DNA of 64,000 nt, taken from Azospirillaceae bacterium (GTDB taxonomy: Bacteria > Pseudomonadota > Alphaproteobacteria > Azospirillales > Azospirillaceae). Where the stretch lies: positions 1 through 64,000 of the forward strand of contig DASQNC010000017.1 in assembly GCA_035645145.1 (NCBI GenBank), read 5' to 3'. The notes below the pieces were generated by a model. That model did not search any database. It was not told the origin of the DNA and saw nothing but the letters and a program-made list of their open reading frames with translations. A program made the position numbers and the translations under genes. Positions 60,819 to 64,000 of the stretch are shown piece after piece; positions within the stretch are counted from its first letter, which is position 1, and every line of letters starts with the position of its first letter.

Positions 60819-62414
60819 TCACGGCCGGGCCGCCGGACGGGCGTCCGGATCGGCGATGTCAAGGGCGCGCAGGATGCGGGGGCCGGAGACCTCCGCGAAT
60901 CCCTTGACCTTCTTGAGTTCCCGCACGATGCCGGCGAGCGTCGGGGCCGGCATGTCCCGGATCGCCTGGAAGGCGTCCAGCCAAGTGTAGGGCCCGCCGG
61001 GCCGGATGCTGGCGACCGCCCCCAGCAGCCTCAAAGCGTCGGCGTTGTCCGGGTGGTTGGGATCGAGCACGCCGCGCCCTTGCGGCGGGAAGGTCCCGAC
61101 CACGTGCATGGCCACCCGGTCGATGGCCTCGTCGCGGTTCCGCTCATCCCAGTCGTCGATCATGTGCCGGCCGGCCGGCGTGTTGGCGAAGAGGTTGACG
61201 TGGATCCCCATTCCGTCCCGGAACAGCACGCCCGGATCATCCTTCGTCGTGAGCATCCAGAAGGCCTCGTGCAGGGCGTTCTCGCCCGGCGGCAGGTGGC
61301 CGGACGCCTGCATGGCCCGTACCAGCACGCGTGCGCGGTCCATGTGCTGGCCGAAATCGGTCTGGGTGGCGCCGATCGAAGGCCCGCTGCCGCCAAGCGT
61401 GTCCTTCTGGAGGGCCGTCCGGGTTGGGGAGGCCGTCCGAAGCGGGGAGCCCGTCCGGCACGCCCGTTCCAGGACGTGCCACGACATCTCCGCGTCGGAG
61501 AGGGTGTTGTAGTGCCCGCTCCGGCCATGCACCCGCGCGATCTCGTCGATCACGGGCTTCGCGACCAGCACCACGCCGCCACTGACGCGGATCTCCCGGC
61601 CGTCGAGCCCGGCATCGACGACCACGATGGGATGGTCGTGGATGAAGGTGACGAGGCGTTCCTCGCCGGTCATGAGATGCGAGACCTGGCGGGCCGGCAG
61701 GGCGAGCAGCGCGGCGGCGCCCTTGTCCCGGACGGCGGCGCAGGCGTCCCGCACCACCCGCCCGTCCTGGCCGTGGACGATCGCCAGGAAGAATTCCTCC
61801 GCCGAACCGCCCTCGACCGACCGGCAGATGTAGTGGCTCCACTCCTGGTCCTTTCGGAGCGTGCCGATGCGCCCGTACTCGACGCGGTGGCGGCGGCCGG
61901 CCGTCTCCACCGCGCCTTCCAGCAGGATCCAGGAGGGCGTGTCGATCTTCCGCAGATCGGCCTTCAGGCCGATGCGGCGCTCCACGCCCAGGGTGTTGCG
62001 CCCCAGGTCCTGCCGCGCCGGCCCTGGAAAAACGCCGCCCCCGTCCGGCTGGGGCAATGGCACAGGGGAACCGGTGTGCAGGTTATGGAGCGCAAAACGC
62101 TCGCGGCCGTCCGGAAGGGTCACGACATAGCCGGCGAACAGCTGGTGCGTCGCGGCATCGACATAGGTTCCGATCCGGTGGTGGATCTCGGAACCTTCGT
62201 GGGCCAGATGCAGGGTGCGGAAGCCCGGCTTGAGCCCGCGCACCGGCATCGGGGCGGCGGTGTCGACCCCCGCCCCGGAATCCCCGCAGGACAGCGCCTC
62301 GGTGCCCCAGCCGGTGTACTTGGCGTTCGCGGGCTGGGCCCCCGCCGGTCCCGTCGCAAGGGCCAGCCAAGCCGCTGTGGTTCCGGTCAGGATCCGCCTT
62401 GCCAAGTCCGCCAT
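60819..62414 (-). CDS. Secreted protein of an unrecognised family, full-length paralogue
   Basis: A 531-residue protein. Residues 1-26 form a signal peptide (MADLARRILTGTTAAWLALA, cleavage near GPAGA-Q). I do not recognise its domains. Three regions can be described. An N-terminal module (about 55-130) has GLKPGFRTLHLAHEG, YVDAATHQLFAGYVVTLPDG and RERFALHNLHTGSPV. A middle module (about 130-340) has FIHDHPIVVVDAGLDGREIR. A C-terminal helical module (about 370-531) is shared with the partial gene to the right (LLGAVASIRPGGPYTWLDAF). ATG 62414 has no strong ribosome binding site but is the only start next to the signal peptide. A short paralogue of the first module lies just upstream. Confidence 0.75.
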   Translation of the reverse strand: MADLARRILTGTTAAWLALATGPAGAQPANAKYTGWGTEALSCGDSGAGVDTAAPMPVRGLKPGFRTLHLAHEGSEIHHRIGTYVDAATHQLFAGYVVTLPDGRERFALHNLHTGSPVPLPQPDGGGVFPGPARQDLGRNTLGVERRIGLKADLRKIDTPSWILLEGAVETAGRRHRVEYGRIGTLRKDQEWSHYICRSVEGGSAEEFFLAIVHGQDGRVVRDACAAVRDKGAAALLALPARQVSHLMTGEERLVTFIHDHPIVVVDAGLDGREIRVSGGVVLVAKPVIDEIARVHGRSGHYNTLSDAEMSWHVLERACRTGSPLRTASPTRTALQKDTLGGSGPSIGATQTDFGQHMDRARVLVRAMQASGHLPPGENALHEAFWMLTTKDDPGVLFRDGMGIHVNLFANTPAGRHMIDDWDERNRDEAIDRVAMHVVGTFPPQGRGVLDPNHPDNADALRLLGAVASIRPGGPYTWLDAFQAIRDMPAPTLAGIVRELKKVKGFAEVSGPRILRALDIADPDARPAARP

Positions 62415-62469
62415 CGCCCGCTCCCGCGCACCGCCGCTGCAATCGTTGATAGCATGAGCGGACGGAACC

Positions 62470-62772
62470 TCAAGCGGAATACACCTGTCCCTGCGGCAAG
62501 ACATCGGCGAAGGCCTTGCCCGTGTCCGGGCGGATCCGTTGCACAGGGAAGCCGGTGTCCAGGTTGTGCAGGCCGAAGCGTTCGCCGCCGTCGGGCAGGG
62601 TGACCACATGGCGGGCGAACAGCCGGCCGGTCGCGGCATCGACACACCCTCCGATGTGTCGGTGGCCGATGTGTCTGTGGATTTCGAAGCCCTCGCGGGC
62701 GAGGTGCAGGGCGCGGAAGCCCGGCGCCAGACCGCGGCGACACCGGCCAGCACCCGTTTTGCCCAGCGGCAT
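62470..62772 (-). CDS. Short paralogue of the N-terminal module of the neighbouring protein
   Basis: A 100-residue reading frame with a strong ribosome binding site (GGAGGGGAG just before ATG 62772) and no signal peptide. From about residue 14 it matches the N-terminal module of the downstream gene: GLAPGFRALHLAREGFEIH, CVDAATGRLFARHVVTLPDG and GERFGLHNLDTGFPV. It stops where that module ends. A five-residue duplication (HRHIG twice) reflects a 15-base tandem repeat. It is either a truncated duplicate on its way to decay or a small protein in its own right; the ribosome binding site favours expression. It could also be an adaptor or inhibitor of its larger paralogues. Confidence 0.6.
   Translation of the reverse strand: MPLGKTGAGRCRRGLAPGFRALHLAREGFEIHRHIGHRHIGGCVDAATGRLFARHVVTLPDGGERFGLHNLDTGFPVQRIRPDTGKAFADVLPQGQVYSA
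62651..62680 (-). repeat. 15-base tandem duplication in the short paralogue
   Basis: Two adjacent 15-base copies (62651-62665, 62666-62680) differ at one base and encode HRHIG twice. It looks recent and keeps the frame. Confidence 0.75.
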
Positions 62773-62894
62773 CGTCTCCCCTCCGCTGCGAGCACCGGGC
62801 CGGGCACAGCAGGATCTGCCGCGCGAAGCGGCGCGGGCAGCCGGTCGGGGCGGACCGCCGCCCCGACCGACCTGAGGCCGCGGCCCCGGCTGCG

Positions 62895-64000
62895 TCAGCC
62901 CATGCCGTTCCGGTCCCGGAACAGGTACTGGCCCAGCAGGCCCATCGGGGGCGCAGGGTCCGGCTCCTCCGGCGCGTGGGCCGAGAGGAACGCGTCGAAC
63001 AGCCCCAGTGGCGAGGGCGGCGGCTTGTCCCAGCCGGGGGCGATCCGGTCGAGCAGCCCCGGTAGCCGGGGCGGTGGCGCCGCCTGGGTCGGGACCCCCG
63101 GGCTGGCGAAGGGCCAGCCCAGGCCCATGCCCGGCGGCGAATGGCTCGCCGCCACCGGCCGGAAGCCCGCGCCCGGCGGTCCATGGCCGTACCCCGGTCC
63201 GGGCAAGGGCGCGGCGGGGAACGGGAACCCGGCCGGTCCGCGGAACAAGGAGGCCTCCTGTCCGCGGATCTCCGGGTTGGACGGCTGCACGGGCGCGGTC
63301 AGCGGCATGGATCCGGCCGGCGGGCCGGCGGGAAGTGAGGTCCCCAGGGGTCCGGGGCCGGTCGGCCCACCCGGCGGGGCCAGGAGTGGCGGCATGGCGT
63401 CAGCCGGCCCGCCGGGCGGCAAGGGGGCCGCCGGCTCGGGGCGGGGCTGCGTCCCGGCCGGCGGCAGGGTCGACTTGCGCCGCGGCGCCTCCGGAATCCA
63501 GAGCGGGATGGGGATCCCGAACGTGGTCAGGATGTTCCGGCCGGAGCCCTTGTCGCCACTGAACGCCTCGATCTTCCAGAGCGCCCGGGCCATGTCGTCG
63601 AGCGTCGGCTGCTCCATCTCCCGGATCGCCTGGAAGGCGTGGAGCCAGTTGTAGTCCCCACTGGGCTGGTTGTTGGCGACCGCGCCCAGCAGCTTCAGGG
63701 CCCTGACGTGGTCGGGATGACTGGGGTCGAGCACGCCGCGGCCGGCGAGCGGACCCGTACCGATCGCGTGCATGAGCACCCTGTTGGCGGCCGCACGGCG
63801 GTTGTCGTTGTCCCAGCGGTCGATCAGCGCCCGGCCCGCCGGGGAGTTGGCGAAACGGTTGATCTTGATGGCCAGCCCGTTCTTGACGAGCACGCTCGGG
63901 TCACCCTTCGTCGTGAGTGCCTTAAACGCCTCCTCGGCGGCCGCTTCGTCCAGCTTCAGGTAACCGGACTTCTGCATGGCGGCGACCAGTTCCTTTGCTT
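62895..64000 (-). CDS. Second large paralogue, C-terminal part (5' end outside the window)
   Basis: The frame is open to the right edge, so the gene's start lies beyond the window; 368 residues are visible. The first 155 or so repeat the C-terminal helical module of the 60819-62414 protein (VAAMQKSGYLKL, NRFANSPAGRALIDRWDN, AGRGVLDPSHPDHVRALKLL, GAVANNQPSGDYNWLHAFQA). The rest is a long low-complexity tail rich in Pro, Gly and Ala (about 190 residues) ending in GQYLFRDRNGMG, not found in the first paralogue. The protein is probably also exported, but its N terminus cannot be seen. Confidence 0.72.
   Translation of the reverse strand, partial: AKELVAAMQKSGYLKLDEAAAEEAFKALTTKGDPSVLVKNGLAIKINRFANSPAGRALIDRWDNDNRRAAANRVLMHAIGTGPLAGRGVLDPSHPDHVRALKLLGAVANNQPSGDYNWLHAFQAIREMEQPTLDDMARALWKIEAFSGDKGSGRNILTTFGIPIPLWIPEAPRRKSTLPPAGTQPRPEPAAPLPPGGPADAMPPLLAPPGGPTGPGPLGTSLPAGPPAGSMPLTAPVQPSNPEIRGQEASLFRGPAGFPFPAAPLPGPGYGHGPPGAGFRPVAASHSPPGMGLGWPFASPGVPTQAAPPPRLPGLLDRIAPGWDKPPPSPLGLFDAFLSAHAPEEPDPAPPMGLLGQYLFRDRNGMG

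What the first reader, a model, noticed from the sequence alone, without database searches (positions are those of the whole stretch)
60819..64000. Tandem cluster of paralogous secreted proteins of no recognised family
Three adjacent minus-strand frames share modules: the full-length protein (60819-62414) and the partial gene at the right edge share a C-terminal helical module of about 150 residues, and a 100-residue frame between them repeats the N-terminal module. I see no known family. Tandem expansion plus a signal peptide suggests a fast-evolving exported system, perhaps a surface or effector/immunity type arrangement.
Basis: partly seen in the sequence, partly recalled or inferred. Interest (0 to 1): 0.72.

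Follow-up and report, generated by a model that had tools for sequence, protein, structure and literature searches.

The report
Repeated wall-cutting toxin and antidote genes
The repeated genes are best read as several copies of a two-gene set, in which one protein probably cuts bacterial cell walls and the secreted protein encoded just before it probably protects the producer; the general idea is known, but this wall-cutting domain has no family entry in the libraries searched.

Summary
The frames belong to two modules, not one family. A is a secreted protein of about 330 residues. B lacks a signal peptide: an N-terminal helical domain plus a proline-rich tail. Three clusters in this genome carry them as A(-A)-B. 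The window shows the end of one: a fused A-B gene, a broken A fragment, and the 3' part of an intact B. Neither module has a convincing match in Pfam, NCBIfam, PHROGs, PADLOC or PDB sequences, nor any in 81 other genomes of the family. Profiles link the B domain to proteins in nine other genomes of the phylum, at the N-terminus of proteins that carry RTX/HINT, LysM or X-T4SS-signal (XVIPCD) domains, and once inside a Mu-like tail cluster. All 15 unfused B loci have a same-strand ORF directly before them, with hydrophobic N-termini. Beside two loci lies a lysozyme inhibitor (LprI), beside a third an LprI-like ORF. A relative's domain models closest to chitosanases of the lysozyme superfamily, with weak scores. 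Best reading: a peptidoglycan-cutting effector (B) with a periplasmic immunity protein (A), duplicated and partly decayed. Activity, protection and export route are inferred, not shown.

The parts
60819..62414 (-). Fused gene, 531 aa: signal peptide + A module (core 61458-62249) + truncated B core (60846-61385). The N-terminal part of B that carries the candidate catalytic Glu in other copies is missing.
   Evidence: GC3 0.89
61458..62249 (-). A module core (candidate periplasmic immunity domain)
   Evidence: profile E 2.5e-150; 62-64% identity to A1-A4, 59% to A5
60846..61385 (-). B core (candidate lysozyme-like domain, truncated)
   Evidence: profile E 3.1e-97; 47-56% identity to the other three B cores
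62470..62772 (-). Remnant of an A gene, 100-aa frame; homologous stretch 62503-62736
   Evidence: E 3.6e-28; 61% identity to the fusion
62895..63998 (-). 3' part of B1 (493 aa in full, start at C17:64376 outside the window): rest of the helical core, then proline-rich tail
63504..63998 (-). Part of the B1 helical core inside the window
62895..63500 (-). Proline-rich tail of B1 with a short C-terminal end shared with B3 (GLL...DRNG), possible export or docking segment
   Evidence: alignment of B1 and B3; B2 tail in another frame; function is inference

Best explanation
A-B is a bacterial antagonism cassette. B is a peptidoglycan-cutting effector: an N-terminal lysozyme-superfamily domain with a candidate catalytic Glu, then a proline-rich tail used for export or docking. 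A, made from the gene just upstream, is exported by its signal peptide and binds B in the periplasm, so that the producer is not lysed by its own or its sisters' B. The cassette was copied to three loci, then A was duplicated and some copies decayed, leaving spare immunity genes and one A-B fusion. Shown: the modules, order, copies, coding frames, and profile links to relatives. Inferred: the enzyme activity, A-B binding, target and export route.
For: Profile of the four B cores finds relatives at E 5.6e-7 to 1.6e-4. B cores versus six non-window relatives: hhalign 96.6%, E 5.1e-10. Relatives sit at the N-terminus of proteins with PT-HINT (7.6e-13) and RTX repeats (6.8e-19) in G156, LysM (2.8e-9) in G131, XVIPCD (4.5e-28, 4.1e-21) plus PG_binding_1 in G649 and G812, and in a Mu-like tail cluster in G341. 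15 of 15 unfused B loci have a same-strand ORF directly upstream (gap -38 to +140 nt); its N-terminal hydrophobicity is >=1.98 in 14 of 15 and 1.67 in the last, against 8 and 11 of 41 script-picked window genes at these cut-offs. More than one partner copy lies near B in G500 (3), G341 (2), G616 (2), G131 C122 (2) and G919 C16 (a second one cut by the locus edge). An LprI lysozyme inhibitor gene stands before the three G500 partners (4.3e-9) and directly upstream of B in G649 (3.9e-13). Model of the G341 domain: Foldseek's first 13 PDB hits are all chitosanases (best E 0.042, prob 0.96); VIA-align Z 6.2 for chitosanases, 4.9 for the bacteriocin pesticin, about 4.4 for T4 lysozyme. A Glu lies exactly 21 residues before the S of the S-x-G-x-x-Q-x-D motif in six loci of five genomes (counted by eye).
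Against: The fold match is weak: no Foldseek hit at E <= 0.001, Z below 8. It was made on a relative with mean pLDDT 65.5, and the stretch with the candidate Glu (residues 21-30) has pLDDT about 58. The window's fused protein modelled poorly (pLDDT 40.7). A is not detectably related to the other partners tested (hhalign 0.1-0.2%), and no A fold was obtained. B1 and B2 have many more residues between the candidate Glu and the motif, and G500 lacks the strict motif. Two relatives' own B starts are also hydrophobic (G649 2.07, G812 1.59), so the lack of a signal peptide is not certain there. No export route is known: no TssB or phage sheath in this genome, no XVIPCD found in B; T4SS and T1SS were not searched. 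B2 and B3 have frame changes. Direct hhalign of window B cores with the XVIPCD proteins is weak (13%, E 0.0021).
Confidence: 0.62

Rival explanations
1. B is a phage-derived lysozyme (tail or lysis enzyme) and A a lysozyme inhibitor that protects against phage or lysis; the clusters are prophage remnants or superinfection-exclusion genes rather than weapons against bacteria.
For: G341 copy lies inside a Mu-like tail cluster (sheath, gp45 spike, Baseplate_J); G500 copy lies 0.6 kb from a phage head-to-tail connector gene (PF12236, E 4.6e-118).
Against: No phage sheath in the window genome, no PHROG hit below E 0.01 for its proteins, no relative found in viral contigs by pattern search nor in 50,697 phage records. 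RTX, HINT and XVIPCD parts fit secreted effectors better.
Confidence: 0.15
2. B is a housekeeping peptidoglycan remodelling enzyme and A its periplasmic regulator or chaperone; copies arose by ordinary gene duplication.
For: Clusters sit among ordinary-looking chromosomal genes; purifying selection on all 15 A pairs (0.41-0.64) and five of six B pairs (0.40-0.65); LysM in G131.
Against: Absent from 81 of 81 other genomes of the family; decayed copies; partner family changes between genomes; B has no signal peptide.
Confidence: 0.13
3. A decaying lineage-specific repeat family with little present function; frame changes in four copies and the fusion show loss.
For: A2, A4, B2, B3 change frame, the remnant is truncated, B3 versus the fused B has dN/dS 1.02.
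Against: A1, A3, A5 and B1 have open frames, and A pairs have dN/dS 0.41-0.64. Some frame changes could be assembly errors (a run of eight C by A4).
Confidence: 0.1

Closest known systems
X-Tfe/X-Tfi effector and immunity pairs of the Xanthomonadales-like type IV secretion system (PMC6759196, PMC6536674, PMC10933484; passages seen)
   Same: Immunity gene upstream of the effector gene, immunity protein with a signal peptide, peptidoglycan-directed effector without one; XVIPCD-bearing proteins in G649 and G812 carry a related N-terminal domain (hhalign 90%, E 1.6e-6 against the other relatives) with LprI (G649) or an LprI-like ORF (G812) upstream.
   Different: No XVIPCD was found in the window genome's B and it has a proline-rich tail; A is of another sequence family; an X-T4SS in this genome was not tested.
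Pesticin and other muramidase bacteriocins (structural comparison only)
   Same: Fold match to a relative's domain (Z 4.9); a periplasmic immunity protein is recalled for pesticin.
   Different: No sequence match; no import domain recognised in B.
GH46 chitosanases
   Same: Top fold match for the relative's domain (family number of most entries recalled); helix with Glu, then beta-hairpin.
   Different: No chitosanase among the PDB sequence hits of the profiles; partner genes and effector-type contexts point to peptidoglycan, not chitosan.
N-terminal domains of RTX proteins with FrpD-like partners (Smlt3024/Smlt3025, PMC6759196, sections 7 and 9 and passages read)
   Same: N-terminal toxin part, swappable C-terminus (RTX in G156), partner gene upstream.
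   Different: No PDB sequence hit of that name for A or for one set of other partners; B versus Smlt3024 was not compared because its sequence was not at hand.

Membership tests
Lysozyme superfamily (GH46-like branch) | Overall fold | tested here: inconclusive
   Model of a relative: first 13 Foldseek hits all chitosanases, best E 0.042, none at E <= 0.001; VIA Z 6.2, in the range the tool calls middling
Lysozyme superfamily (GH46-like branch) | Catalytic Glu at the end of the first helix, then a beta-hairpin | tested here: inconclusive
   Glu 21 residues before the motif in six loci, 22-25 in three, farther in the others (by eye); model helix 14-29 ends at Glu29, strand 49-51 follows, but pLDDT there is about 58; the fusion lacks this part
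Lysozyme superfamily (GH46-like branch) | Glycan-cutting activity | not testable with these tools
   needs an enzyme assay
X-Tfe (X-T4SS effectors) | C-terminal XVIPCD | tested here: not met
   no XVIPCD hit in B1, B3, the fusion or the B2 frame L010:4946-6850; the B2 tail in its other frame was not scanned apart; met in relatives G649 and G812
X-Tfe (X-T4SS effectors) | Upstream gene for a periplasmic immunity protein | tested here: inconclusive
   place and hydrophobic N-terminus: 15 of 15 unfused B loci (some partner starts chosen by eye); immunity itself not tested
X-Tfe (X-T4SS effectors) | X-T4SS in the genome | not tested
T6SS effector | T6SS in the genome (TssB) | tested here: not met
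   no PF05591 match in the window genome (listed as 100% complete); the same-genus genome G052 has one
Lysozyme inhibitor LprI (for A) | PF07007 match | tested here: not met
   no match in the A proteins scanned; matches in neighbours of B relatives
Polymorphic toxin/immunity systems | Shared candidate toxin domain joined to varied delivery domains, with a candidate immunity gene beside it | tested here: met
   PT-HINT/RTX, LysM, XVIPCD, proline-rich parts; the domain is N-terminal here, unlike the usual C-terminal place
Polymorphic toxin/immunity systems | Toxicity neutralised by the neighbour's product | not testable with these tools
   needs expression tests

The most novel reading that the evidence does not exclude
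An undescribed N-terminal lysozyme-superfamily toxin domain moves between export routes (X-T4SS, RTX/type I, phage-tail-like particles) by swapping its C-terminus, always with its antidote gene in front; in this lineage the proline-rich tail with the conserved end marks a further, unknown route for killing neighbours.
Probability: 0.3. Interest if true: 0.72.

Novelty: new variant of a known kind. Interest (0 to 1): 0.52.

Why it matters
If right, proteins with no family entry gain a testable function, a portable wall-cutting toxin domain with its antidote is recognised across alphaproteobacteria and other members of the phylum, and the proline-rich tail becomes a lead for an export route that uses neither T6SS nor XVIPCD. 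It also gives a case of how spare immunity genes and effector-immunity fusions arise by duplication and decay.

Tried and rejected
Sequence libraries gave only weak, unconvincing hits (best E 0.015) or none for A and B: Pfam, NCBIfam, PHROGs, PADLOC (131, three proteins), PDB by sequence. Homology of A to other partners was tested three times and not found; the G131, G341 and G616 partners were not compared with A by profile. No relatives in viral contigs, phages or plasmids. The first genome-contig scan, with A, found nothing. Module A was searched in whole genomes only within the family (82 genomes), not in the class or phylum.

Dropped hits: G123 (E 9e-4, antisense of a transporter-like frame), G276 (E 0.0097, antisense of a monooxygenase-like frame), G774 (E 6e-4, no ORF of 200 aa or more on the matching strand there and a regulator-like ORF opposite). 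G649 and G812 came in at only E 0.0013 and 0.0022 and were kept because of the motif, the XVIPCD and the neighbour; their direct link to the window B cores is weak, their link to the other relatives better; in neither comparison does the aligned part contain the S-x-G motif. Searches around G156 and G097 covered only 2 genomes and 1 genome and added nothing.

Empty-site test for the window cluster: the flanks are not contiguous in the same-genus genome G052, so it told nothing. Model of the window's fused protein: pLDDT 40.7, unusable. Literature searches that no paper met: 92, 94, 135.

Bias to tell: partner start codons were partly chosen by eye (A5, G919 C10, G649), whereas the 41 background genes were picked by script from GC3 and length and begin at the first Met; some may not be genes. 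The B2 gap was measured from an internal codon. The fused fourth B copy was left out of the 15. The strict motif was found in 12 of the 14 rows (not in G500, nor in the short B3 frame used there). The candidate Glu was chosen by eye after seeing the sequences. That partner copies in G341 and in G616 are paralogues of each other was judged by eye. In the alignment behind the model the Glu segment of the G341 protein is set off by a gap. The relatives were collected by profiles that began with the window B cores, so one search is not fully independent.
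Full report
What is there. The window lies on contig C17 (90,761 bases) of a 3.89-Mb genome held as G000. Comparing them with the rest of the genome shows two modules. Module A is about 330 aa with a signal peptide. Module B has no signal peptide: an N-terminal helical domain and, in three of its four copies, a proline-rich tail. Own-genome searches with DNA and with profiles find three clusters. On C17: A2, A1, B1, an A remnant, and an A-B fusion. On C7: A4, A3, B2. On C40: A5, B3. The window contains the fusion (60819-62414), the remnant (62470-62772) and the 3' part of B1 (62895-63998).

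Are the frames real? GC3 is 0.80-0.91 and GC2 0.39-0.66 in the 12 stretches measured; three other window genes give GC3 0.87-0.95. Nei-Gojobori dN/dS is 0.41-0.64 for all 15 A pairs. For the six B pairs it is 0.40-0.65 in five and 1.02 in one (B3 against the fused copy). So they are coding and mostly constrained, but fast-evolving. Four copies change frame (A2, A4, B2, B3). A4 does so next to a run of eight C; near the other three no run is longer than five. I cannot tell decay from assembly error.

The fusion and the remnant. The fused protein joins a whole A to a B that lacks its N-terminal part, where other copies carry the candidate catalytic Glu. Its B half is therefore probably inactive. 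The remnant holds about 75 residues of A without signal peptide or C-terminal part. In relative G131 a 51-aa truncated start of B lies between two partner copies. This is the same kind of debris and suggests duplication of the cassette followed by loss of the effector.

Known families. A and B gave no Pfam, NCBIfam, PHROG, PADLOC or PDB sequence match of note. Of 82 genomes of the same family, only the window genome has A or B; the one other genome of its genus, G052, has neither.

Relatives of B. The profile of the four B cores found G131 (E 5.6e-7 and 1.5e-5) and G341 (1.6e-4) among 385 genomes of the class. With these added, G097 (2.5e-8) and G156 (0.0013) appeared. In 398 genomes of the phylum: G500 (1.8e-7), G616 (5.1e-5), and weakly G649 and G812. 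In 274 genomes of the class of G616: G919 with three loci, best 1.3e-12. Three further weak hits were dropped (see Tried and rejected). The common mark is S-x-G-x-x-Q-x-D, preceded by a Glu; the strict motif is in 12 of 14 rows. The distance is exactly 21 residues in six loci of five genomes, 22-25 in the three G919 loci and longer elsewhere (counted by eye). Profile comparison of the window B cores with six relatives gives 96.6%, E 5.1e-10.

What the relatives look like. In the relatives read the domain is N-terminal, with varied C-terminal parts: PT-HINT and RTX repeats in G156, LysM in G131, proline-rich in G500, a frame of up to 2514 aa in G616, PG_binding_1 and XVIPCD in G649 and G812. 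In G341 the gene stands inside a Mu-like tail cluster with sheath, gp45-type spike and Baseplate_J. In G500 it stands 0.6 kb before a phage head-to-tail connector gene.

The gene in front. All 15 unfused B loci, the three of G000 included, have a same-strand ORF directly upstream, gap -38 to +140 nt. Its N-terminus is hydrophobic (score >=1.98 in 14, 1.67 in the last), against 8 of 41 and 11 of 41 script-picked window genes at these cut-offs. Some partner starts were chosen by eye, so the contrast is somewhat flattered. Against a clean picture, the B starts of G649 (2.07) and G812 (1.59) are also hydrophobic. Partners are repeated: three in G500, two in G341, two in G616 (one nearly 5 kb away), two in G131 C122, and a second one cut by the locus edge in G919 C16. 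They fall into several sequence families; A is not detectably related to those tested. In G649 the gene directly upstream is an LprI lysozyme inhibitor (3.9e-13), in G812 an ORF that looks like it (not scanned), and in G500 an LprI gene lies before the three partners (4.3e-9). A lysozyme inhibitor in this place is the strongest hint that B cuts peptidoglycan.

Fold. A model of the G341 domain has mean pLDDT 65.5, about 90 over residues 61-130 but only about 58 where the candidate Glu29 lies. Foldseek's first 13 PDB hits are all chitosanases (best E 0.042, prob 0.96), none at E <= 0.001. VIA-align gives Z 6.2 for chitosanases, 4.9 for pesticin and about 4.4 for T4 lysozyme. The tool warns that Z below 8 may be a common arrangement, so this is support, not proof. 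The first aligned residues (model 11 to chain residue 2 of 6lwu and 7c6d, whose titles name E19A mutants) put Glu29 of the model within a residue of that Glu, if no gap lies between; I could not inspect the full alignment.

Mechanism. Shown: two modules, their order, duplication and frames, and the shared N-terminal domain in effector-like proteins. Inferred: B cuts glycan strands; A blocks it in the periplasm; spare A copies guard against other versions of B; the proline-rich tail serves export. Published parallels, seen as passages: X-Tfe effectors with immunity genes usually upstream (PMC6536674), a GH19 effector and its periplasmic immunity protein that protects the producer itself (PMC10933484), an X-Tfe similar to RTX N-terminal domains (PMC6759196, sections 7 and 9 read, rest passages), LprI/DUF1311 beside wall-cutting T6SS effectors (PMC12135965), and the conserved core of the lysozyme superfamily including GH46 (PMC7511926). 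The window genome has no TssB or phage sheath match, so T6SS or a contractile particle is unlikely here. T4SS and T1SS remain untested.

Verdict. A new, uncatalogued member of the lysozyme-type effector and immunity world, with an unusual tail and a lineage-specific partner. It is not a categorically new system. It is moderately interesting because the domain seems portable between export routes and its function is easy to test.

Noticed in passing
L030:2014-4911 (G341 contig C13): In the Mu-like tail cluster a second candidate pair lies nearby: a 479-aa ORF behind two tandem membrane-protein-like paralogues (226 and 158 aa, by eye), so this tail locus may carry several effector/immunity pairs.
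   Followed up: partly
L059:5028-5180 (G131): A 51-aa truncated copy of the start of B between two partner genes, debris of a duplicated cassette.
   Followed up: partly
L051:3509-4549 (G500): An LprI-type lysozyme inhibitor with an added DUF3298 part stands before three tandem secreted partner genes.
   Followed up: partly
L010:8934 (G000 contig C7): Run of eight C at the frame change in A4: possible phase variation or assembly error.
   Followed up: no
L067:1675-2622 (G919): One partner looks like a lipoprotein (a Cys right after the hydrophobic stretch) while its paralogues look like ordinary signal-peptide proteins.
   Followed up: no
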